Shown here one piece after another: positions 25,221-39,626 of a stretch of DNA of 64,000 nt (its first letter is position 1; every line of letters starts with the position of its first letter). A program made the position numbers and the translations under genes. Under the pieces are notes generated by a model that had not been told where the DNA came from, did not search any database, and saw only the letters and a list, made by a program, of their open reading frames with translations. The stretch comes from Gluconobacter albidus (GTDB taxonomy: Bacteria; Pseudomonadota; Alphaproteobacteria; Acetobacterales; Acetobacteraceae), in assembly GCF_002723915.1 (NCBI RefSeq), contig NZ_BEWL01000013.1:1-64000 (forward strand), written 5' to 3'.

Positions 25221-28200
25221 TCAATTTCTTTTCATGACAGCCTTGATCAGGTGCACCGCTCCGTCATCCTTCAGCACAACCGGCGCTTCATTTTCGAGGT
25301 GGCTTCCGTTTTCCCAGACGTCCACCACGCCCCGGCTGATCTGATCCGGATTTCTCACCTCAACCCGGTAGGTCGCTGTTTTCCAGCGGAGCACCACGTC
25401 AAACCCCGGCCATTCCGGCGGAATGCAGGGCGAGAGAAACAGTTCGCCGTCCTCGATCCGCACACCCAGCAGGACCTCAGTACCAACACGCTGCATCCAT
25501 CCTGCCGAACCCGTATACCAGGACCAACCGCCACGCCCGACATGGGGTGCTGCGGAATAGACATCCGCCGCCACCACATAAGGCTCCAGCCTGTACCGCC
25601 CGGCAGCAGCTTCGTTCCGGGCATGATGAACGGGGTTGATGGTGGCAAACATTGCATGGGCCGCAGCTCCGTCCCCCAGCAGGGCCGTCGCCAGGACGGT
25701 CCAGAGAGCAGCATGGGTATACTGACCGCCATTTTCCCGAACGCCGGGCGGGTAGCCGCGAATATAGCCCGGGTCAGGCTCGGATTTATCAAAGGGCGGC
25801 GTCAGGACCATGATAATGCCGTCGTCAAGCCGCACGAGCTGCTCCCGCACTGCCTGCATGGCCAGGCGGGCGCGCTCAGGATCTCCAATCCCGGAAATCA
25901 CGGCCCAGGACTGCGCGATCGCATCAATCCGCCCTTCCCTGTTGAGATGACTGCCCAGCGGCGACCCGTCATCAAAATAGGCTCGGCAGTACCACTCCCC
26001 GTCCCAGGCATTTTCAAGTCCTGCCTTGAGATCCGTAAGCGCACGGTGCCACTTCTCAAGACGGGCCTGGTCGCCCCGCGCCTCCGCATGAGGGATAAAC
26101 GCCTTCAACGCCGAGGACAGGAACCAACCAAGCCAAACGCTTTCTCCCCGACCGGCCTCGCCGACGCGGTTCATCCCGTCATTCCAGTCGCCAGTCCCCA
26201 TGAGCGGCAGGCCATGAGCCCCCCATGTTAGACTATGGTCGAGCGCTAAAGCACAGTGTTCGTAAAGCGAAGCGCGCTGTTCCGTCATTGAGGGCTGAAG
26301 GAAGCGTTCATGCTCGTCATTCGCCAGCACGGGCGCGTCAAGGAAGGACAATTCCTCATCCAGAACGCTCCGATCCCCACTGACACGCACATACTGCGCC
26401 ACTGTAAACGCTAGCCATGCGCAGTCATCGGAAATGCGCGTCCGCACGCCATTGCCCTTCTGGGGCAGCCACCAGTGCTGGACATCGCCTTCCACGAACT
26501 GCCGCGACGCCGCGCGCAGCAGATGCTCGCGGACCAGTGCAGGCGCGGAGGTTACAAGCGACATCCCGTCCTGAAGCTGGTCGCGGAACCCGTACGCACC
26601 GCTGGCCTGATAGAATCCGGCCCTCGACCAGATGCGGCTCGACAGGGACTGATACAGGAGCCACCCATTGAGCATGATGTCCATCGACCGGTCCGGAGTG
26701 CGAACCTGAAGGGCTTCCGTAACAGAACGCCAGCCCTGTTTCACGTCCTCCAGAACAACATCGAGATCCGCGGCCCGGTATTGCGCAATCAATTTCCGGG
26801 CGTGCTCGACATTCTGTCCCTGCCCCAGAAGGAAGACGATTTCCGTCTCTTCACCCGGCGCCAGACTGAGGACCGTCTGCAAGGCCGCGCAGGGATCGAC
26901 ACCTGCGCCGACAAAACCCGCAAGATCACCACCCCGAACAATCGCCCGAGGCGCGGACAGGCTCCCGTAACGTCCCAGAAATGCCGTCCGGTCATCCATA
27001 CCCGAAACCGGATGCCCGCCGAAATCCGCAAATGCCACACGATCGCCGAACGTATCTCCCCATACATTCCGGGCGAATACGGCACCCGTTTCAGTATCGG
27101 TTTCCGAGAACACAAAGGGCACCGCAGACATCCGGGAGCGCCCGAGAACCCATTCCACATAGGCTGTCGCACGCAAAGTCCGTGTGCGGGAGGTCTGGTT
27201 CACCAGACGCAGCCTTGAAATCCTGATCGGATCTTCCTGTGGCACATACTGCACCAGTGTACTGGCAATCCCGTCCGCAACCCGCTCGAACCGACTGTAA
27301 CCGCGCCCGTGATACGCAACATGGACCGCCGTTTCGTCAGAACAGACCGCCGCCAGGGGCGACCAGAAAAACCGGCTCTCCTCATCGCACAGATAAAAAG
27401 CCTCTCCCGGCGGATTGCTGACCGGGTCGTTGCTCCAGGGCGTGAGCTGGTTCTCACGGCTGTTTTCAGACCATGTATAGCTGCTGCCTTCCGCTGAGAC
27501 CTGAAACCCGAAATGTGGATTTGAGATCACGTTGATCCACGGCGCCGGCGTGGTGCGGCGTCCCCGCAGAATCACGGCATATTCCGTCCCATCTGCCGTG
27601 AATCCTCCATACCCGTTTGAAAGTTCGAGTTCCGGAAGGGCTGGCGCCTCTCCGCTCGCCCGGTAAGGACGGAAAACCTCCTCTTTCCTCAAAGCGGCCC
27701 TGTCCTGCCGGATCGTCTCCGCGCGGGTGATCTGATATTGCAGGCTTCCGCCCTTTCCGGGGAGCACCACGCGCGCAGCAGAAAACAGAAGTTCCTTCAC
27801 GACCCCCGACATCAGGCTGCCCCGCAGCAGATGGACACCTCCGGCACCGCCCCCTACCGAGGACGATCTGACGAGCGTTTCAAGCGCCTGCTGAAGATCC
27901 TGCGCATAGGACGTCGGATGTTCGTTCAGGATGACCACATCCACGGCCAGCGCCTTGATCCGGAAATATTCCTGTGCCCTGAGCACCGTGCGGGCAAGCT
28001 CGAAGTCCTCGCTTTCACTCACGACAAGCAGCAGGATCGGCAGATCGCCCGACAGGCCCTGCCCCCACAGATCGGTCTGGCGCCCCGCCCCGCGCCTGAT
28101 CCGCTCAGGAGAGGCCCGCAGTGTCGGACCGGCATAAAGCAGGAACCCCGCCAGCTTCTGGAACAGATCCGCCTGAGTGGGGCGGATGTCGAGATGCCGC

Positions 28201-31200
28201 AGCTGAATCTGTGCATGCGTCCAGGCCAGCGTCAGCGCGCGGTCGAGATCCGCCGCATCCTGATGCCGCTCGATGCTGTCCATCAGAGCGGCCCGGGTCG
28301 AGGCCACGATCGTCCAGAACGACACCCGTCGGGTGGCCCGTGGCGGGACCGCCAGTCTGCACCGCACGGCAAAAGCTGCATCCAGCACCGTCCCTGTACT
28401 ACCCGAAAGCTCAGAAGCTCCCTGCAACGCGAGGGGCGCCTGAAGATCACGGCCCCGCCCCACAAATCGTGCGCGGTCCGTCTCGATGGAGAGGGGACCG
28501 CCTCCGACCACCAGACAGGCAGCCCAGATTTCCTGCTCCCCCGGGCTGCGACGTCGGCGCGTGGCGATGAGGGCGCGCTGCGACGGGAGATATTCCGTCT
28601 GTACGAACATGCGGGCAAAAGCGGGATGGGCAAGGTCCGTCTCTGGCGGGCACAGCGCCAGCTCGACATAGGACGTCACTTCGATCTCAGCAGTCGCCAG
28701 ACCCGTATTTCTGACGGAAATCCGGCGAAGTTCAGCATCGTCCTCCGCAGAGACCAGCACATCCATCGTCGTCGTCAGTTCGCCATCCTGCCGCAGATAG
28801 GTGGCGCGGTCCTCACGGAACTCGACACTGCACTGATCCGCCGGAACCCCGCAGGGCTGAAAACCGGCGGACCACACACGGCCGCGTCCGATATCCCGCA
28901 GATAAACATACGATCCCCAGTTATCGAGCGTCCCGTCCTCACGCCAGCGCGTCACCGCCTGCCCGTTCCAGCGGCTGTAGCCCGACCCTGCGGCGGTCAG
29001 CATGACGCTGTAGCGGCCATTGGAGAGAAGATGCGTGACGGGAGGAGCATCCACATCCAGCGCGATCTGACGCCCTCCGGGAGCCTGTCCCGTAGAAGCT
29101 GGTGGCGGGAGCAGTTTTTCTTCCTTCAGAGGGCGCGTTATGGCTCCGCCGATCGGCGCGCGCTCCTGAAGCAGAAGCTCGGCAGCGCCCATCATGGGTT
29201 CCGCATGAAACCGTCTGCGCATGATCCCATCCAGAATGGTATCTGCGAAAGCCAGAATGGACATACCCTGATGATGCGCCATGTAGGAGCGGATGATCGC
29301 AGGATTTTCCCCCGGCCGCAGGCGCTCTTTCGTGTAGTCCAGGGCCTCGTAAAAGCCGAATGCTCCCTGTGCGCCGAGTGCCTCCAGACGGGCAAAATTC
29401 GCCACGGCCTTGCGGGCATTCACCATGGCGGCCAGCGCCGTCGCATAAGGCGCGATTACGAGGTTCTGAGCAAGGCCCCGCTTCATTCCCAGACCCGGGA
29501 CGCCGAAATTGGAGTACTGGTAATTATAGTCCAGATCCCGGGCATTATAGGCTGATTCCGAGATGCCCCAGGGCGTTTCACGCGCCTGCCCATATTCGAC
29601 CTGACGTCTGACGATCTGTCGGCTGGTTCCTTCCAGCAGACTGTCGAACGGCGCCGCCATAACCAAAGATGGCATCAGATATTCGAACATGGAACCTGAC
29701 CACGATACGAGCGCCTCACCACGCGCCACAGCAGCGACAGGCCGCCCCAGCCGGAACCAGTCCCGGGCAGGAACATCGCCTTTCGCAATTGCAAAAAATG
29801 AGGCGAGGCGCGCTTCAGATGCCAGAAGATCGTAGCAGTTATCGTCCAGAACGCCGTCATTGACGACATACCCAATCGAAAGCAGACCGCGCTCACGGTT
29901 ACGCAGGAAGCCGAATTCCATATCAAGCGCCATGGTCCGGGCCTGTTCTGCCAGTTCCTTCAGCAGTCTGGCTGTCTGCAGTCCGGCAGCGCCGTCTCTC
30001 TGGTCGCTGCGAATGGCATTCTGGGCAGCCTGCAGCCAGAACAGGACACTTTCCGCTCCTCCTGCCGGAACGCTATCCCTGTCACTGACTTTCCGTGCTC
30101 TCGTTCCGTTCAGGGACTGCACGGCCTCACCGGCACGGGCAACGAGAGCCATCAGTCTTTGCTCGACAAAAATCTGCCCGGCAGCATTCTCCAGCAATTC
30201 ATGCAACAGCGACCGGATATCCTGCGCGATGCTGACCGAGCGAAAAGCGTCGCCAGCTGCGGTCAGGTCTGCCTGCGCCAGAGCCAGCGCATCCTGCACG
30301 CCCCGTCTCCAGCCGTCAGGCGAACGGCCCTTGTGTTCCCATTCCATAAAGGTCCGGCCCAGCGCAATCAGATGCCCTGCCAGATTGCCGCTATCGACGG
30401 TCGAGACATACACCGGTGTGAGAACGGACAGGTCTTCCGTGCTGTACCAGTTGTAGAAATGTCCCCGGTAGCGTGGCAGCCGGGCCATCGTCGCGAGCGT
30501 TTCCTGTACCCGCTCCACAGCCTCAGCCATACCGATCCAGCCAAAATCATGCGCGGCGACAACGCACAGGAGATACAGCCCCATATTTGTAGGCGACGTT
30601 CTGCGCGCCAGGAGGGCGGCGGGCTCTTCCTGAAAGTTGTCAGGCGGCAGGAAATGATCCGATTCCGTGACGAAGGTTTCGAAATATTTCCATGTCCTTC
30701 TTCCCTGAAGGCGCAGGACCATTGTTTCGTCCACTGTTGCCTCAAGTCTGCGCGCGGAAACACTGTATTGGCTCGCCTTCCACGCGAAGACCGGCGACAG
30801 CACCCAGACACATGCAAAGGGCAGCATCACAAGCCACACCAGAGGCGCCATCAGAGACATCAGAGCAAATGCGAAAGCACCGAGGAGGATGGCCCCTCCC
30901 ATCTGACGTACGTATCCCATCAGACTTTCACGCGGCGCCTCGGCGGCCTGCGCCGCTGTCACCCATTGCAGGAGATGCCTGCGGGTAACGAACACTCTCG
31001 CAAACGTGCGGACGATTGCATCGCCCATCAGGCAGGCCTGATCGGCCAGAAACACCAGACAGAGCGCGGTCGTCAGAACTGTCCGTTTCAGATCCGTTCC
31101 GAGCAGGGCAAGGTAACTGTCAAGCGTCTCCCCCTGCCGGAAGCGAAACGCGTCAATCAGTAGAGGAAGAACGGCTGGAATGGCGACGGTTGCAACAATA

Positions 31201-32291
31201 CATGCCGTCCAGACAAAGGCATCATGCCCTCCCAGCATCCATCCTGCGAACAATGCCGCCACAGCCATGGGTGCGGACAGACTGCGCCGCAGGTTATCCA
31301 GCATTTTCCAGCGCGCAATGCCTGTCATGGGTGTCGAGCGTATGCCGATCGTCGGCAAACGTCCCATCCATGAAAAAATCCATGGCAGAAGCTGCCAGTC
31401 CCCTCGCGCCCATCTGTGCAGGCGGGATGCCGAAACGAGATAATCCGTCGGGAATTCCTCGATGACTTCGATATCGGTCACAAGTCCGGCACGGGCGAAA
31501 ACACCTTCGAACAGATCGTGACTCAGCAGCGTTCCTTCAGGTACACGACCGGCCAGCGCAGCCTCGAAGGCATCAATGTCGTAAATTCCCTTGCCGGCAA
31601 ACGATCCTTCGGAAAACATGTCCTGATACAGGTCCGAAACAGCGGCCGTGTAGGGCTCGATACCATTCGGGCTGGAAAAGACGCGCTGAAACAGCGTACT
31701 ACTCCGCGTCTTGGGCAGAGAGGGCGTCACGCGCGGCTGGAGGATCCCATAGCCTTCCACGACGGCACCACGTCCTGGATCGAAGCTCGCCCTGTTCAGG
31801 GGATGGGCCAGTTTACCGACCAGGCGCCGTACCACTTCGTAAGGCAGCCGCGTGTCGCTATCGAGCGTCACGACATATCGTACGCCTTCTGGAATCCGCT
31901 GCCCCGGAAGCAGCATGAAGCTCGTGTCTTGTGCTCCGCGCAGAAGGCGGTTCAACTCATGCAGCTTGCCGCGCTTGCGCTCCCAGCCGATCCACTTCCC
32001 TTCACCTTCCGACCATTTCCGGCGGCGATGCAGCAGCAGGAAACGCTCCGAAGCCCCATCAGCCGCTCCATCAGTTCGCCCGTACATACGGTTCAGCCGC
32101 GCAATGCCCTGCACGGCCTGCTCCAGCAGGTCCTCGTCTCCCGCACGATGTTCGGAAGACCAGTCCGTCCAGTCCGTCAGCAGCGCAAAACTGATATCCC
32201 CGTCCCGGCTGGCGAGATAATGTTTTTCAAGCCGGTCAACCATTTCTCCAACGGCCTGACGATGCGTCAACAGGGTCGGCACTACGACCAT
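25221..32291 (-). CDS. ndvB: Cyclic beta-1,2-glucan synthase, C-terminal 2356 aa (after in-frame stop)
   Basis: This is the bulk of an NdvB/Cgs enzyme, which builds, cyclises and exports periplasmic cyclic beta-1,2-glucans from UDP-glucose. The GT84 domain begins at once (MVVVPTLLTHRQ) with the acidic motif LDSDTRLP near residue 140. Membrane helices lie around 350-530. A glycoamylase-like region (DLDYNYQYSNFGVPGLGMK) is near 917. The GH94 phosphorylase domain with GTGDWNDGMNRVGE is near 2030. The 22 codons upstream stay open back to a TAG at 32358-32360, in frame with the preceding N-terminal piece. No good ribosome site precedes ATG 32291, so independent expression is doubtful. The whole gene would encode about 2861 residues, the normal family length. 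Confidence 0.85.
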   Translation of the reverse strand: MVVVPTLLTHRQAVGEMVDRLEKHYLASRDGDISFALLTDWTDWSSEHRAGDEDLLEQAVQGIARLNRMYGRTDGAADGASERFLLLHRRRKWSEGEGKWIGWERKRGKLHELNRLLRGAQDTSFMLLPGQRIPEGVRYVVTLDSDTRLPYEVVRRLVGKLAHPLNRASFDPGRGAVVEGYGILQPRVTPSLPKTRSSTLFQRVFSSPNGIEPYTAAVSDLYQDMFSEGSFAGKGIYDIDAFEAALAGRVPEGTLLSHDLFEGVFARAGLVTDIEVIEEFPTDYLVSASRLHRWARGDWQLLPWIFSWMGRLPTIGIRSTPMTGIARWKMLDNLRRSLSAPMAVAALFAGWMLGGHDAFVWTACIVATVAIPAVLPLLIDAFRFRQGETLDSYLALLGTDLKRTVLTTALCLVFLADQACLMGDAIVRTFARVFVTRRHLLQWVTAAQAAEAPRESLMGYVRQMGGAILLGAFAFALMSLMAPLVWLVMLPFACVWVLSPVFAWKASQYSVSARRLEATVDETMVLRLQGRRTWKYFETFVTESDHFLPPDNFQEEPAALLARRTSPTNMGLYLLCVVAAHDFGWIGMAEAVERVQETLATMARLPRYRGHFYNWYSTEDLSVLTPVYVSTVDSGNLAGHLIALGRTFMEWEHKGRSPDGWRRGVQDALALAQADLTAAGDAFRSVSIAQDIRSLLHELLENAAGQIFVEQRLMALVARAGEAVQSLNGTRARKVSDRDSVPAGGAESVLFWLQAAQNAIRSDQRDGAAGLQTARLLKELAEQARTMALDMEFGFLRNRERGLLSIGYVVNDGVLDDNCYDLLASEARLASFFAIAKGDVPARDWFRLGRPVAAVARGEALVSWSGSMFEYLMPSLVMAAPFDSLLEGTSRQIVRRQVEYGQARETPWGISESAYNARDLDYNYQYSNFGVPGLGMKRGLAQNLVIAPYATALAAMVNARKAVANFARLEALGAQGAFGFYEALDYTKERLRPGENPAIIRSYMAHHQGMSILAFADTILDGIMRRRFHAEPMMGAAELLLQERAPIGGAITRPLKEEKLLPPPASTGQAPGGRQIALDVDAPPVTHLLSNGRYSVMLTAAGSGYSRWNGQAVTRWREDGTLDNWGSYVYLRDIGRGRVWSAGFQPCGVPADQCSVEFREDRATYLRQDGELTTTMDVLVSAEDDAELRRISVRNTGLATAEIEVTSYVELALCPPETDLAHPAFARMFVQTEYLPSQRALIATRRRRSPGEQEIWAACLVVGGGPLSIETDRARFVGRGRDLQAPLALQGASELSGSTGTVLDAAFAVRCRLAVPPRATRRVSFWTIVASTRAALMDSIERHQDAADLDRALTLAWTHAQIQLRHLDIRPTQADLFQKLAGFLLYAGPTLRASPERIRRGAGRQTDLWGQGLSGDLPILLLVVSESEDFELARTVLRAQEYFRIKALAVDVVILNEHPTSYAQDLQQALETLVRSSSVGGGAGGVHLLRGSLMSGVVKELLFSAARVVLPGKGGSLQYQITRAETIRQDRAALRKEEVFRPYRASGEAPALPELELSNGYGGFTADGTEYAVILRGRRTTPAPWINVISNPHFGFQVSAEGSSYTWSENSRENQLTPWSNDPVSNPPGEAFYLCDEESRFFWSPLAAVCSDETAVHVAYHGRGYSRFERVADGIASTLVQYVPQEDPIRISRLRLVNQTSRTRTLRATAYVEWVLGRSRMSAVPFVFSETDTETGAVFARNVWGDTFGDRVAFADFGGHPVSGMDDRTAFLGRYGSLSAPRAIVRGGDLAGFVGAGVDPCAALQTVLSLAPGEETEIVFLLGQGQNVEHARKLIAQYRAADLDVVLEDVKQGWRSVTEALQVRTPDRSMDIMLNGWLLYQSLSSRIWSRAGFYQASGAYGFRDQLQDGMSLVTSAPALVREHLLRAASRQFVEGDVQHWWLPQKGNGVRTRISDDCAWLAFTVAQYVRVSGDRSVLDEELSFLDAPVLANDEHERFLQPSMTEQRASLYEHCALALDHSLTWGAHGLPLMGTGDWNDGMNRVGEAGRGESVWLGWFLSSALKAFIPHAEARGDQARLEKWHRALTDLKAGLENAWDGEWYCRAYFDDGSPLGSHLNREGRIDAIAQSWAVISGIGDPERARLAMQAVREQLVRLDDGIIMVLTPPFDKSEPDPGYIRGYPPGVRENGGQYTHAALWTVLATALLGDGAAAHAMFATINPVHHARNEAAAGRYRLEPYVVAADVYSAAPHVGRGGWSWYTGSAGWMQRVGTEVLLGVRIEDGELFLSPCIPPEWPGFDVVLRWKTATYRVEVRNPDQISRGVVDVWENGSHLENEAPVVLKDDGAVHLIKAVMKRN

Positions 32292-35402: not shown

Positions 35403-36701
35403 TCAGTTTCTGATCCTGCTCCGTGCCTCCCGCAGCGTCATGGTCCCGACCCGCTGCGAGAGGTAAATCCCGGTTTTGCCCGAACAGACGCAGGCCACGA
35501 AACATCCGATCGCGAAATAGACGATATCCCCGGCACCAAACAGCTCCACGCCCATGAGGGTACAGGCCAAAGGCGTGTTTGCAGCTCCGGCAAAGACCGA
35601 CACAAAGCCCACGGCAGCGAACAGGTCCACCGGCACATGCAGTGCATGGGCCAGAACATTGCCCGCCGCAGCCCCCAGAAAGAACAACGGCGTCACCTCC
35701 CCGCCCTTGAAGCCGCTCGCCAGAACGACGACCGTAAACACCAGCTTCCAGAGCCAGGACCACGGATAGAATGCAGGTCCGAAAAAACTGACAATGGACG
35801 CTCCGCCGGGTTCTGCCGGAAAAACCCCCAACCCAAGATAATCCCTGTTTCCAACGATTATGACCAGAAGAATGGTCGCAATCCCGCCAATGGCTGGTCG
35901 CAGCCATGTTCTCGGACAGACTGTTTTCATCACTGCTGCCAGACGGTGCACACTTTCGGCAAAGATCCAGCTCAGCAGACCAAAAACCACTGCCGCACCG
36001 GCAACCTTCGCAGCCAGCACGGGATTGACATGCCATAGCGTGCCGTCGGCCATCACTGTTCCCTGAAACATCAGGGGATAAAAAACATGGTGCACACCCC
36101 AGGCGCGACAAGACCAGTCTGCAATAATGGATGCCGTAGCCGCGGGCAGAAGGAAGCGGTAGTCAAGCCGACCGAGTGTCAGAACTTCAAGAGCGAAAAC
36201 CGCTCCTGCAACTGGGGTTCCGAATACGGAACCAAAGCCGGCAGCAATGCCGCAGGTGAGCAGGGCACAGGTTTCTGAAGGACGAAGCCCAAACAGTCGC
36301 GCAGTCGCACTGGCCAGACTGCCTCCAACCTGTATGGCTGTCCCTTCCCGCCCAACAGAGGCTCCGAAAAGATGGCTCACAACAGTAGCAATGAGCACGA
36401 AAGGCGCCATCCGAAGTTGAACTCCGGCGCCCGGCTCGTGGATTTCATCCACGATCAGGTTCGCCCCACCCTCCACATCACGTCCGAACCAGAAATACCA
36501 CAGTCCGACAGCCACGCCCGCCAGAGGCAGCCCGAACAGCAGGCCCGGGTGAGCGATCCTGCAGGCAGTGACAACATCCAGAAGCCACAGAAACAGAGCG
36601 CAGACACTGCCGATGCAGACTGACAGCATCACTAGGACAGCGAGCATCCGGCAGTAGCCGAGAACACTGGAAAAACGGAATTGATTTTGAACGTCGTTCA
36701 T
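35403..36701 (-). CDS. CLC-family antiporter, CLC-F (fluoride) type
   Basis: A 432-residue CLC protein with about ten hydrophobic helices. The usual chloride-selectivity motif GSGIP is replaced by GANLI (in GGANLIVDEIHEP near residue 80), while the gating Glu is kept in GREGTAIQVGGSLAS near 120. These are marks of the CLC-F clade, F-/H+ antiporters that expel fluoride. The leader holds a fluoride riboswitch, which strongly supports that substrate. ATG 36701 lies about 13 bases after AGGAG, a long gap; the AGGAG is partly buried in the riboswitch expression platform. A longer frame to 36782 would run through the aptamer and is rejected. Confidence 0.88.
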   Translation of the reverse strand: MNDVQNQFRFSSVLGYCRMLAVLVMLSVCIGSVCALFLWLLDVVTACRIAHPGLLFGLPLAGVAVGLWYFWFGRDVEGGANLIVDEIHEPGAGVQLRMAPFVLIATVVSHLFGASVGREGTAIQVGGSLASATARLFGLRPSETCALLTCGIAAGFGSVFGTPVAGAVFALEVLTLGRLDYRFLLPAATASIIADWSCRAWGVHHVFYPLMFQGTVMADGTLWHVNPVLAAKVAGAAVVFGLLSWIFAESVHRLAAVMKTVCPRTWLRPAIGGIATILLVIIVGNRDYLGLGVFPAEPGGASIVSFFGPAFYPWSWLWKLVFTVVVLASGFKGGEVTPLFFLGAAAGNVLAHALHVPVDLFAAVGFVSVFAGAANTPLACTLMGVELFGAGDIVYFAIGCFVACVCSGKTGIYLSQRVGTMTLREARSRIRN

Positions 36702-36744
36702 GGTGGACGCAGGTCTCCTGTCTTGTCCCCGAAGGGCATTAAAA
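36702..36744 (-). promoter_or_regulatory. Riboswitch expression platform: SD-sequestering helix
   Basis: In the mRNA, UCCUGUUUU at the aptamer 3' end can pair with AAGACAGGA, whose last bases overlap the AGGAG ribosome site. A small CCC-UUCG-GGG hairpin sits between them. The UC of UCCUG is also needed by the aptamer pseudoknot, so ligand binding and sequestration exclude each other. Predicted logic: fluoride turns translation on. Confidence 0.6.
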
Positions 36745-36808
36745 CAGGAATCATCAGCTTCCGGATGAAGCGGTTCGACCACAGATGGTCAGGCAGAATC
36801 CATTGCCT
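36745..36808 (-). ncRNA. Fluoride riboswitch aptamer (crcB motif)
   Basis: On the minus strand: P1 is AGGCA/UGCCU around the 8-base loop AUGGAUUC. An optional side hairpin GACCA-UCUG-UGGUC follows, then AACC, and P2 is GCUUC/GAAGC. The invariant UGAUG comes next, with GAUUC as the pseudoknot strand. The loop GAUUC and the downstream GAUUC pair at four of five positions with a central U-U. AUG after P1 and UGAUG after P2 are the ligand-pocket nucleotides of known crcB-motif RNAs. The gene served is a CLC-F antiporter. Confidence 0.85.
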
Positions 36809-36989
36809 TCAGACAGGCAAAAAAGCCCTTCAGCGCCCGATCTGTCAAGAGATACAGCCTCCAGGCAGATGACAAGGTTTTAAGGGGATGCCACTTTCCA
36901 GCATGACAGGTGTATGCCACCGTGACTGTAACAAAAACGGGCGGCCCCGATCCGTCCTTCCATCCGGCTGATTTAGGGAGCTGCATATC

Positions 36990-39626
36990 ATGCGTCGCCT
37001 TCTGGTTCTCACGACCCTTCTTGCAGGACTGCCCTTTGCGCTTCCGGCGCAGGCCGAAGGAACCTTTTCCTTCGCCACAACACCGGGACAGCTTCCCAAA
37101 ACCGTTGTGCCGACGGATTACGTCATCGACCTGACAACCGACATGGAACATCTGACCCTTCAGGGTGATGAAATCATCCGGATCGAAGTTCAGACTCCGA
37201 CTGCCGATATCACGCTCAATCAGGCGGGTCTCAAGCTCGCGAGCGCCCTGCTCGACAACTCCCAGAAAGCCGTCATCCATCAGGATGACGCCGCGGAAAC
37301 GGTCACACTGCATTTCCCGGCCCCCGTTCCGGCAGGGATGCACACTCTGGCGATCAAGTATTCCGGGCCGATCCTCAAAACGCCCAACGGCATCTACGTC
37401 GACGACTACACGGACCCCAAGGGCAAGCCGCAGCGGATGCTGGTTACGCAGTTCGAAGTCGCGGATGCGCGCCGGATGTTCCCAGGCTGGGACGAGCCGG
37501 CCTTCAAGGCGACCTACCAGCTAAACGTGACGCTTCCTTTTGAATACGCAGCCGTGAGCAACATGCCGATCATCGGCACGACACAGCAGGATGAGAAGAC
37601 AAAACGCGTCTCCTTCACCCCGACGCCGCGCATGTCGAGCTATCTTCTGGCGCTGGTGGCGGGCGACATGGCCTCCGTCGATGGCAAGGCAGATGGCACC
37701 CCTCTCCGCGTTTTCGCACCGAGCGGCCTTGAGAACCAGGGCACCTATGCCTTGGGAGCTGCCGAAAAGATCCTGCCCTATTACAACGACTATTTCGGTA
37801 TCAAGTACCCGCTGCCGAAAATGGACATGCTGGCCATCCCGGGCAATTATCAGGCAGGCGCGATGGAGAACTGGGGCGCGCTGACCTATATTGATAACGT
37901 CCTTCTGTTCGATCCGAAGAACAGCACGCCCCGCACCCGCGAACTGATCTACGAAGTTGTCGCGCATGAAATGGCGCATCAGTGGTCCGGCGATCTGGTG
38001 ACCATGGGCTGGTGGGACAATATCTGGCTGAACGAAGGCTTTGCATCCTGGATGGAAATCAAGGCGACGGACAAGATGAACCCGGAGTGGGACATCTGGC
38101 CGCGTCAGCATGAAACCCGCGAAAGCACGATGGCGACGGATGCCCTGTCCACCACCCATCCGATCCAGCAGACCATTCACAATGTGAGCGAAGCCAATTC
38201 GGCGTTTGACGGTATCAGCTACGGCAAGGGTGAACTTGTCATCCGCATGATGGAAGGCTGGCTGGGCGAAGACCATTTCCGTGACGGAATGCGCGCCTAC
38301 ATGAAGGCCCATGCCTTTGGCAGCGCCACCAGTCAGGATCTGTGGAATGCACTGTCAAAGGCCTCAGGGCAGGATGTCGGCAGGGTGGCACGCAGCTTTA
38401 CCGAACAGCCCGGCATCCCGCAGATCAATGTTGCGGCGGTCTGCCAGAACGGCCAGACGACATACACTCTCACGCAGAGCCGTTTCACGATCCACGACCC
38501 GAATGCGAAAGCCCTGACCTGGAACATTCCCGTCGTTGCGGGCGGTCCGGGACTTGAAACCAGAAAGCTCGTCCTCGGCGCAGAGCCCGTGACTTTCACG
38601 CTGCCCCGCTGCGATGCCCCCCTCAAGCTTGATCTGGGCGAGAGCGGCTATTACCGCGTGCATTACGACGACACCGCCTTCGCGCCAATTGCCGCTTCAA
38701 TTTCGAAATTTGCACCCGTGGACCGCGCCAATATCCTTGGCGATCAGTTCGCCCAGTTCCGTGCCGGCCATGGAAACCTGTCGTCCTATTTTGACCTCGT
38801 GGACCGCCTGACAGCCGCGCATGAGCACGACATCGCCACGCTTGAGGAAATCATCGGCAAACTGGAAACGCTTGACACCTATGAAATCGGCAGCCCGGAC
38901 CGCGCCGCATTCCAGGCCTATGCCCGCAGCCGTCTGGCCCCTGTTCTGAAGCGTCTGGGCTGGGACCAGAAGCCGCATGAAAGCGTGCTGGACACGATGC
39001 TGCGCCCGTCCGTGATTTCTGCTTTGGGAGATTTCAACGATCCGGCCGTTCTTGCAGAAGCAAAGCGTCGTTTCGCAGCATGGCTGAAGAACCCGGCTTC
39101 CCTGCGCCCCGATCTGGTGGGAACGGTCTCGGCACTGGCAATGAAAAATGCCGACGCCGCGACCTACGACATCATGGCCAAGAAAGTCCGTGACACGCAG
39201 GCCACGGAGCTCAAACTCCGCCTGTTTCAGGCTCTCGCCAACGCCACGGCCCCTGATCTGATCCGCCGCAACGTCGAACTGGCCTATAGTGGGGCCATTC
39301 CGAACGGTCGTATTTCAATGGCCCTGTCGTCAATCGCATCCGCCAGCGAAAATCCGGATCTCGTCTGGAAGCTCGTCCGCCAGCACGAAGCCGAAATCCG
39401 CACACATCTCGCGCCTTGGTCACAGGACGGGTTCCTTCCTGCCATTGCGGCTCATTCCAATAGCCCGGACATCCTCGCCGAGCTTCAGAAAGACCCGTCT
39501 TCCACCATGACGACCGGTGCGAAAATCGCGACGGCCCATGCGGTCAACGCCGTTTCCGCCCGCAAGGAAGCCGTTCAGGCCGCCCAGAGCCAGATCCACG
39601 ACTGGCTCGCCTCTCACACCCGCTAA
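36990..39626 (+). CDS. pepN: Exported M1-family metalloaminopeptidase
   Basis: An 878-residue zinc aminopeptidase. The signal peptide (MRRLLVLTTLLAGLPFALPAQAE) directs it to the periplasm, unlike cytoplasmic PepN. The exopeptidase motif GAMENWGAL is near residue 290. The zinc motif HEMAHQ is near 326, with the third ligand in WLNEGFASW near 347. A long alpha-helical ERAP1-like C-domain follows. It removes N-terminal residues from peptides. It is divergent from the CLC gene and followed by a hairpin, so it is probably monocistronic. Confidence 0.92.
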   Translation: MRRLLVLTTLLAGLPFALPAQAEGTFSFATTPGQLPKTVVPTDYVIDLTTDMEHLTLQGDEIIRIEVQTPTADITLNQAGLKLASALLDNSQKAVIHQDDAAETVTLHFPAPVPAGMHTLAIKYSGPILKTPNGIYVDDYTDPKGKPQRMLVTQFEVADARRMFPGWDEPAFKATYQLNVTLPFEYAAVSNMPIIGTTQQDEKTKRVSFTPTPRMSSYLLALVAGDMASVDGKADGTPLRVFAPSGLENQGTYALGAAEKILPYYNDYFGIKYPLPKMDMLAIPGNYQAGAMENWGALTYIDNVLLFDPKNSTPRTRELIYEVVAHEMAHQWSGDLVTMGWWDNIWLNEGFASWMEIKATDKMNPEWDIWPRQHETRESTMATDALSTTHPIQQTIHNVSEANSAFDGISYGKGELVIRMMEGWLGEDHFRDGMRAYMKAHAFGSATSQDLWNALSKASGQDVGRVARSFTEQPGIPQINVAAVCQNGQTTYTLTQSRFTIHDPNAKALTWNIPVVAGGPGLETRKLVLGAEPVTFTLPRCDAPLKLDLGESGYYRVHYDDTAFAPIAASISKFAPVDRANILGDQFAQFRAGHGNLSSYFDLVDRLTAAHEHDIATLEEIIGKLETLDTYEIGSPDRAAFQAYARSRLAPVLKRLGWDQKPHESVLDTMLRPSVISALGDFNDPAVLAEAKRRFAAWLKNPASLRPDLVGTVSALAMKNADAATYDIMAKKVRDTQATELKLRLFQALANATAPDLIRRNVELAYSGAIPNGRISMALSSIASASENPDLVWKLVRQHEAEIRTHLAPWSQDGFLPAIAAHSNSPDILAELQKDPSSTMTTGAKIATAHAVNAVSARKEAVQAAQSQIHDWLASHTR

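What the first reader, a model, noticed from the sequence alone, without database searches (positions are those of the whole stretch)
36702..36808. Fluoride riboswitch controlling a CLC-F antiporter by a translation-on switch
The minus-strand leader of the CLC gene shows P1, the AUG pocket, an optional side hairpin, P2, the invariant UGAUG and a pseudoknot partner, as in crcB-motif RNAs. The pseudoknot is unusual: GAUUC pairs with a second GAUUC, four of five pairs with a central U-U. The UCCUG strand just after it can also pair with AAGACAGGA over the ribosome site. The two structures share bases, so the expression platform can be read directly. The protein has GANLI instead of GSGIP, independently pointing to fluoride. 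A link between crcB-motif RNAs and CLC-F transporters is established; this mechanistic reading is mine.
Basis: partly seen in the sequence, partly recalled or inferred. Interest (0 to 1): 0.75.

Follow-up and report, generated by a model that had tools for sequence, protein, structure and literature searches.

The report
Fluoride-sensing RNA switch before fluoride exporter
An acetic acid bacterium carries an RNA leader that matches a known fluoride sensor and probably uncovers the start signal of a fluoride pump gene when fluoride is present; this kind of switch is known, but here and in many relatives one pair in its key fold is always mismatched.

Summary
The minus-strand leader is a fluoride (crcB-motif) riboswitch: Rfam RF01734 matches window 36738-36816 with 43.9 bits (cut-off 34). 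The gene behind it encodes a CLC-F-type antiporter: its strong PDB matches are CLC-F structures (185-188 bits; next match 19.8 bits), it groups apart from GSGIP-type CLC paralogues of the genus, and no CrcB was found in the genome. All 26 genomes of the genus have the RNA; 25 have the CLC-F gene directly behind it.

The odd pseudoknot is real and shared. Position 3 is pyrimidine·pyrimidine in 50 of 187 unique proteobacterial aptamers parsed: 47 of 115 from the window's family, 3 of 72 others. They mostly precede CLC-F (41 of 53 loci). In 17 genus aptamers that position is paired in 0 of 17, the other five in 17 of 17.

The 3' pseudoknot strand can also pair with the ribosome-binding strand (10 bp here), and no terminator-like site was found. 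A translation-on switch is the best-supported mechanism; modelled SD release is partial, and fluoride response is untested. A new variant of a known kind.

The parts
36843..36848 (-). TTGACA, possible -35 element
   Evidence: TTGACA begins 35-41 nt before P1 in 19 of 25 genus leaders; the consensus scan found no full sigma-70-like promoter
36738..36816 (-). fluoride riboswitch aptamer (RF01734 match)
   Evidence: 43.9 bits, E 7.2e-9
36804..36808 (-). P1, 5' strand AGGCA
   Evidence: changes on both sides in 2 of 5 pairs among 17 genus aptamers
36796..36801 (-). pseudoknot 5' strand GGAUUC
36791..36795 (-). P1, 3' strand UGCCU
36777..36790 (-). side hairpin GACCA-UCUG-UGGUC
   Evidence: changes on both sides in 2 of 5 pairs among 17 genus aptamers
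36757..36771 (-). P3 stem-loop GCUUC-AUCCG-GAAGC
   Evidence: changes on both sides in 3 of 5 pairs
36752..36756 (-). conserved UGAUG
   Evidence: three letters invariant and two near-invariant in 44 rows
36747..36752 (-). pseudoknot 3' strand GAUUCC, also used by the OFF helix
36746..36746 (-). U that corresponds to U48, partner in the A40-U48 linchpin pair (the A is 36754)
   Evidence: both letters invariant in the 44-row alignment; role from PMC8752731, passages; the correspondence of numbering is my inference
36741..36750 (-). OFF-helix 5' strand UUCCUGUUUU
   Evidence: 10 bp with AAGACAGGAG, G.U pairs allowed
36727..36736 (-). short hairpin CCC-UUCG-GGG inside the OFF helix
   Evidence: predicted in the minimum-energy fold
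36715..36724 (-). OFF-helix 3' strand AAGACAGGAG, holding the SD AGGAG (36719-36715)
35403..36701 (-). CLC-F-type fluoride/proton antiporter gene, 432 aa, ATG at 36701

Best explanation
The leader is a fluoride riboswitch that turns on translation of a CLC-F fluoride exporter. Without fluoride, the 3' pseudoknot strand and the bases behind it (UUCCUGUUUU) pair with AAGACAGGAG and hide the SD, so little exporter is made. When fluoride rises, the aptamer docks: GAUUCC pairs with the P1 loop, the A40-U48 pair locks, and AGGAG is released for the ribosome. The pseudoknot is weak because position 3 is a conserved pyrimidine-pyrimidine mismatch, so the OFF fold should dominate unless fluoride locks the aptamer. 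Shown here: sequence, covariation of the stems, family membership, gene linkage, mutually exclusive pairing. Inferred: fluoride binding, the direction of control, and the effect of the mismatch.
For: RF01734 hit. Riboswitch in 26 of 26 genus genomes; CLC-F in 25 of 26, by coordinates directly behind a riboswitch in 25 of 25. CLC-F by PDB match, motif and tree. CrcB in only 2 of 26 genus genomes, not in this one; the one genome without CLC-F (G307) is one of the two. In 24 of the 25 CLC-F leaders of the genus that were folded, the SD is on average 7% unpaired in the free fold and paired with the pseudoknot strand at mean probability over 0.5 in 20 of 24; forcing a docked-like fold raised SD accessibility by more than 0.2 in 18 of 24. 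In 59 distinct leaders of the mismatch group the best helix of the strand includes position 3 in 57, and 26 of 59 reach the 5% level against shuffles, the window with 0 of 100. No terminator-like site.
Against: No fluoride-dependent result exists here. Predicted SD release is incomplete: in the window's own leader only the last two SD bases become open in the docked-like model, the other three re-pair; in 6 of 24 leaders the change is 0.2 or less. With a simpler constraint only 14 of 24 passed, leaders with shuffled linkers gave a mean rise of 0.16, and for the window 17% of such shuffles rose as much. 33 of 59 leaders do not reach the 5% level in the helix search, some by far. The SD lies 13 nt before the ATG, which is long. 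Folding energy is ordinary. Outside the genus an automatic survey gave strong SD-pseudoknot pairing in only 6 of 24 mismatch-group leaders, and in 11 of 71 ordinary ones.
Confidence: 0.8

Rival explanations
1. The same aptamer controls transcription (Rho-dependent or through an unusual terminator) rather than translation.
For: Transcriptional fluoride riboswitches are well known: 323 of 1901 tested sequences were functional in an in vitro transcription assay (PMC13273304, passages). Termination without an obvious hairpin and U-run would not be seen by the scan.
Against: No terminator-like site in 36560-36990; the alternative helix ends on the SD and not on a U-run; in the automatic survey a U-run of 5 or more before the start occurred in 0 of 49 mismatch-group leaders, against 8 of 71 ordinary ones.
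Confidence: 0.11
2. The mismatch has weakened the aptamer so far that it is a relic or binds fluoride poorly, and the gene is made constitutively.
For: Nearest-neighbour energy of the pseudoknot helix is -2.8 against -8.3 kcal/mol if position 3 were G-C. 6 of 39 U.U aptamers also have A.G or G.G at position 1. PMC8752731 states that the locked state needs both the pseudoknot and A40-U48, and PMC11077080 says that mutations in the pseudoknot can break function.
Against: In 17 genus aptamers the other five pseudoknot pairs are invariant while the stems covary, and pocket letters are invariant or near-invariant in 44 rows, which a relic would not keep; the riboswitch stands before CLC-F in 25 of 25 genus genomes that have the gene.
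Confidence: 0.05
3. The group senses something other than fluoride, as some riboswitch variants do.
For: A coherent sequence group with its own P1, side hairpin and pseudoknot; some members precede genes that I do not recall as typical fluoride genes (Alginate_exp, Usp).
Against: AUG is invariant and UGAUG invariant or near-invariant, as are the linchpin letters; 41 of 53 loci precede CLC-F.
Confidence: 0.04

Closest known systems
Fluoride riboswitch, crcB motif (Rfam RF01734); Bacillus cereus and Thermotoga petrophila aptamers
   Same: P1 with AUG loop, P3, UGAUG, pseudoknot of the P1 loop with the strand after UGAUG, A40 and U48 letters, strand shared between pseudoknot and expression platform (PMC11077080, PMC8752731, PMC13273304, passages)
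   Different: Pseudoknot position 3 is U.U where the Rfam consensus shown has G-C; position 1 is C-G where B. cereus has a U.G wobble that Hertz 2024 found necessary for switching (PMC11077080); platform hides an SD and not a terminator; side hairpin present
Riboswitch-controlled EriC-F/CLC-F genes (Baker 2012, Stockbridge 2012)
   Same: crcB-motif RNA before a CLC-type fluoride exporter; the link is stated in PMC7266159 (passages); the two original papers are not held and were not read
   Different: Pseudoknot variant and the GANLI motif; that the P. syringae eriC leader acts on translation is recalled, not checked
CLC-F antiporter of Enterococcus casseliflavus (PDB 6D0J)
   Same: Aligned over query residues 24-421, 188 bits; Glu of GREG and the Glu and Thr of GGEVTP kept
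   Different: Ala where that protein has Met79 and CLC-ec1 has Ser107 (PMC12035849, passages); most relatives here have Asn

Membership tests
Fluoride riboswitch RF01734 | covariance-model score above the curated cut-off | tested here: met
   43.9 bits against 34
Fluoride riboswitch RF01734 | P1 with AUG loop, P3, conserved AACCGC and UGAUG | tested here: met
   alignment; invariant or near-invariant columns
Fluoride riboswitch RF01734 | pseudoknot between the P1 loop and the strand after UGAUG | tested here: met
   5 of 6 pairs, each 17 of 17 in genus aptamers; position 3 unpaired in 17 of 17. A fully paired pseudoknot, as in the consensus, is not met
Fluoride riboswitch RF01734 | A40 and U48 linchpin letters | tested here: met
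   A and U invariant in 44 rows; the 44 are 44 of the 50 distinct mismatch-group aptamers
Fluoride riboswitch RF01734 | binds fluoride with Mg2+ | not testable with these tools
   needs probing
CLC-F fluoride/proton antiporter | closer to CLC-F than to chloride CLCs | tested here: met
   188.2 bits to 6D0J, 19.8 to the next PDB sequence, Sll0855; 40 CLC-F rows apart from six GSGIP paralogues, 99/97 and 100/100. That the GSGIP paralogues carry chloride is taken from the motif; a family check of them failed
CLC-F fluoride/proton antiporter | no central chloride-coordinating Ser; extra Glu and Thr in GGEVTP; Glu in GREG | tested here: met
   GANLI, GREGT, GGEVTPLF; residue roles from PMC12035849 and PMC11077948, passages
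CLC-F fluoride/proton antiporter | fluoride transport | not testable with these tools
   needs flux assay
Translation-on riboswitch | ligand-state and SD-hiding helices exclude each other | tested here: met
   shared strand 36750-36746; the modelled release of the SD is partial
Translation-on riboswitch | translation rises with ligand | not testable with these tools
   needs reporter

The most novel reading that the evidence does not exclude
A distinct subclass of fluoride riboswitches, centred on acetic acid bacteria and CLC-F genes, has given up pairing at pseudoknot position 3. That base of the 3' strand is instead kept for pairing with the ribosome-binding strand in the OFF state (possible in 57 of 59 leaders). 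[quoted passage not shown] cereus, has moved to the middle, and the fluoride-locked state leans more on the A40-U48 linchpin than on the pseudoknot helix.
Probability: 0.33. Interest if true: 0.6.

Novelty: new variant of a known kind. Interest (0 to 1): 0.42.

Why it matters
[quoted passage not shown] This group is a natural experiment with one pseudoknot pair broken across many species, so the question can be put to RNAs that evolution has already tuned. It could also supply compact fluoride-induced translation switches, and would explain fluoride resistance in a genus where CrcB was found in only 2 of 26 genomes.

Tried and rejected
A relocated-weak-point rule was tested in its simple form: that the position-3 mismatch always goes with a strong C-G at position 1. 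It holds for all 11 C.U and C.C aptamers but only 24 of 39 U.U ones; the others have U.G (9), G.G (3) or A.G (3). It is a tendency only, kept as part of the speculative reading.

A short upstream frame in the window (ATG 36739 to TGA 36698, overlapping the CLC start as ATGA) looked like a leader peptide; L034, for one, has no ATG there, so I treat it as chance. A GTG start inside the aptamer (459-aa frame) was rejected because an SD stands before ATG 36701 and relatives align from there.

Folding of 24 leaders with only the pseudoknot strands blocked gave 14 of 24 switching; adding P1, P3 and U48 constraints gave 18 of 24. Both are reported. An automatic survey outside the genus gave weak SD pairing (6 of 24), partly, I think, because it often picked another SD word than the strand that pairs; a direct search for the helix favours finding pairs and was therefore compared with shuffles.

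Rows dropped: one search considered 207 loci and dropped 13 that the parser could not place; some kept rows are weak Rfam matches below the cut-off (for example L059, L060, L124-L127). L118 in the U.U class probably has a bulged register; L181, counted as U-A, is U.U when read by eye, as is L277. One search left out L181, L277 and new loci with poor parses. Alignment A2 holds 17 of the 24 distinct mismatch-group aptamers of the genus, A1 44 of 50. In A1 MAFFT misplaces the P1 3' strand of several rows, so pairs were counted on A2 only. The tree holds 47 chosen rows; L303, a long branch, was not interpreted.

Literature: I saw no description of a mismatch group, but only in open-licence papers, by the searches, of which only the papers named here were opened, and those only in passages. 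Baker 2012 and Stockbridge 2012 are not held, so a description there is not excluded.

Full report
What was claimed.

Check of the observation. All elements are there at the stated coordinates. The Rfam fluoride model hits 36738-36816 on the minus strand with 43.9 bits (cut-off 34, E 7.2e-9); it is the only gathering-level Rfam hit in the 64-kb window and the only match in this genome at E 0.001. The minimum-energy fold of the 121-nt leader shows P1, the side hairpin, P3 and the SD-hiding helix together, although its total energy is ordinary (z -1.48, 20 of 200 shuffles as low).

The organism and the gene. The nearest named relative is Gluconobacter cadivus (93% protein identity); 'genus' below means the 26 genomes that the tool puts in the window's genus. 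The gene (ATG 36701, 432 aa) has Pfam Voltage_CLC. Among PDB chains its strong matches are three CLC-F sequences (185-188 bits); the only other match up to E 10 is Sll0855 at 19.8 bits. It carries GREGT, GGEVTPLF and GANLI. The Glu and Thr in GGEVTP align with positions described as E318 and T320 of the E. casseliflavus protein (PMC12035849 and PMC11077948, passages; a three-residue offset between chain and paper numbering is my inference). In a tree of 47 chosen rows, 40 CLC-F proteins are separate from six GSGIP paralogues of the genus (99/97 and 100/100); the very divergent L303 was not interpreted. Of the 40, 8 read GANLI and form one clade (100/100); of the other 32, 28 read GNNLI, the rest GNNLL, GNNLV, GNDLI and GSNLI.

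Genomic setting. RF01734 is present in 26 of 26 genus genomes, over the cut-off in 23 of 26. A CLC-F ortholog is present in 25 of 26, and the coordinates place it directly behind a riboswitch in 25 of 25. The exception, G307, has its riboswitch before an Alginate_exp protein. CrcB is found in 2 of 26 genomes, G307 and G299, and not in the window's genome. So in most of the genus CLC-F is the only recognised exporter. Of five more distant CLC-F loci from other phyla that were scanned, three (L102, L103, L105) have a gathering-level fluoride riboswitch before the gene and two (L101, L104) do not.

The pseudoknot. Following Hertz 2024 (PMC11077080, passages), position 1 is the top pair. The window has C-G, U-A, U.U, A-U, G-C, G-C. 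From 207 fetched loci I parsed 194 aptamers, 187 of them distinct; 13 were dropped and some kept ones are weak matches. Position 3 is G-C in 106, A-U in 25, U.U in 39, C.U in 6, C.C in 5, G.U in 4, other in 2. The pyrimidine-pyrimidine group is thus 50 of 187. The sample leans toward the window's own lineage: the group is 24 of 27 distinct aptamers in the genus, 23 of 88 in the rest of the family, 3 of 24 in the rest of the class survey (one of them, L118, doubtful) and 0 of 48 in the phylum survey. All 37 distinct aptamers whose P1 strand is GGCA are in the group; 49 of 50 members have the long linker (41 nt or more) against 26 of 106 G-C aptamers. In 17 genus aptamers, P1, side hairpin and P3 show changes on both sides (25 such cells; 0 of 500 shuffles as many, a control that relatedness can inflate; sliding the partners lowers the score), while pseudoknot position 3 is paired in 0 of 17 and the other five pairs in 17 of 17. 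In the wider group position 1 is less constant (6 of 39 U.U aptamers have A.G or G.G), and some relatives have one extra U in the 5' strand.

Spread. A covariance model of the group matched 88 of 299 family genomes at E 0.001, but many of those are weak hits to ordinary aptamers. The 32 loci L253-L284, fetched from the strongest places (not every strong place was fetched), are all of the mismatch kind, 31 by script and L277 by eye. Among 385 genomes across the class, 20 matched, but outside the family only G597 and G356 scored above 50 bits.

Genes controlled. Of 53 loci of the mismatch group, 41 precede CLC-F (24 of them in the genus), 3 an Alginate_exp protein and 9 something else. Of these nine, six were checked: one CrcB, three Usp, two without a Pfam family. 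In Alphaproteobacteria I saw one CLC-F gene with an ordinary aptamer (L026); the other CLC-F genes with ordinary aptamers were from other classes or phyla.

How it works. The 3' pseudoknot strand runs on into UGUUUU and pairs with AAGACAGGAG over the SD: 10 bp in the window, 0 of 100 shuffles as good, though by duplex energy 9.7% of shuffled SD segments do as well. Duplex energy of the helix is -10.8 kcal/mol, against -2.8 for the mismatched pseudoknot helix, -8.3 with G-C at position 3 and -6.7 for a consensus-like helix with a top U.G (nearest-neighbour duplexes of typed strands, not tertiary energies). In 24 of the 25 genus CLC-F leaders the SD is on average 7% unpaired in the free fold and 43% in a docked-like fold; the change exceeds 0.2 in 18 of 24. 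In the window's own docked-like fold only two of five SD bases are open. Across 59 distinct leaders of the mismatch group the base at position 3 of the 3' strand, unpaired in the aptamer, lies in the best OFF helix in 57 (38 U.G, 14 U-A, 5 C-G; all five C are matched by G), with 26 of 59 at or below 5% of shuffles and a median of 8%. The search favours pairs and the species are related, so this is suggestive, not a test of selection. An independent survey with automatic SD choice found strong SD-pseudoknot pairing in 22 of 25 genus leaders, 6 of 24 other mismatch-group leaders and 11 of 71 ordinary ones. No terminator-like site lies near.

Why a weak pseudoknot could work. Single-molecule work on the B. 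[quoted passage not shown] it also says that the locked state needs both the pseudoknot and A40-U48 (PMC8752731, abstract and passages). Both letters are invariant in 44 rows here. Hertz 2024 found a wobble at the top critical for switching in transcriptional fluoride riboswitches, and recalls that pseudoknot mutations can break function (PMC11077080). A strong top pair with a mismatch in the middle may be another way to keep the pseudoknot openable; this is inference, and these papers also give reason for doubt.

Comparison with the literature. The crcB-motif to EriC/CLC-F link is established (PMC7266159, passages). A translational fluoride riboswitch used in archaeal hyperthermophiles is mentioned in PMC11077080. 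An RNA-seq study of G. oxydans 621H lists a fluoride riboswitch before a gene annotated CrcB and detected no TSS there (PMC5756330, passages). I saw no description of a mismatch group in the searches listed under Tried and rejected, which cover open-licence papers only.

Verdict. The finding is right. The system is a known kind; the pseudoknot variant group may be undescribed and is worth a bench test.

Noticed in passing
L052 (G307), L057 (G299), L187 (G037): Fluoride riboswitches of the mismatch kind stand before genes of the Alginate_exp family, hinting at fluoride control of an outer-membrane protein. A search for 'fluoride riboswitch' with 'porin' listed two papers, neither opened.
   Followed up: partly
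G299 contig C72 (L032, L057, L074, L305): A 12.2-kb contig holds five fluoride riboswitches with enolase, Alginate_exp, CrcB and CLC-F genes. G037 contig C20 carries relatives of its enolase, Alginate_exp and CLC-F genes; it may be a mobile fluoride-resistance island, which I did not test.
   Followed up: no
G094, G183, G253: These genomes of the same family have 14, 12 and 10 fluoride riboswitch matches.
   Followed up: no
window 35403-36701, residues 79-83 of the protein: The CLC-F motif GNNLI has become GANLI in one Gluconobacter clade, an Asn-to-Ala change at the central ion site.
   Followed up: yes
L165, L174, L192: Mismatch-type fluoride riboswitches precede Usp-family genes.
   Followed up: partly
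L054, L055, L056: The Rfam cut-off misses the riboswitch in 3 of 26 genomes of the genus (31.3-33.9 bits against 34).
   Followed up: yes
window 36698-36739, minus strand: A 13-codon frame overlaps the CLC start codon as ATGA; relative L034 has no ATG at its start.
   Followed up: partly
window 25221-32291, minus strand: A 2356-aa frame that resembles, from recall only, cyclic beta-glucan synthases; not examined.
   Followed up: no
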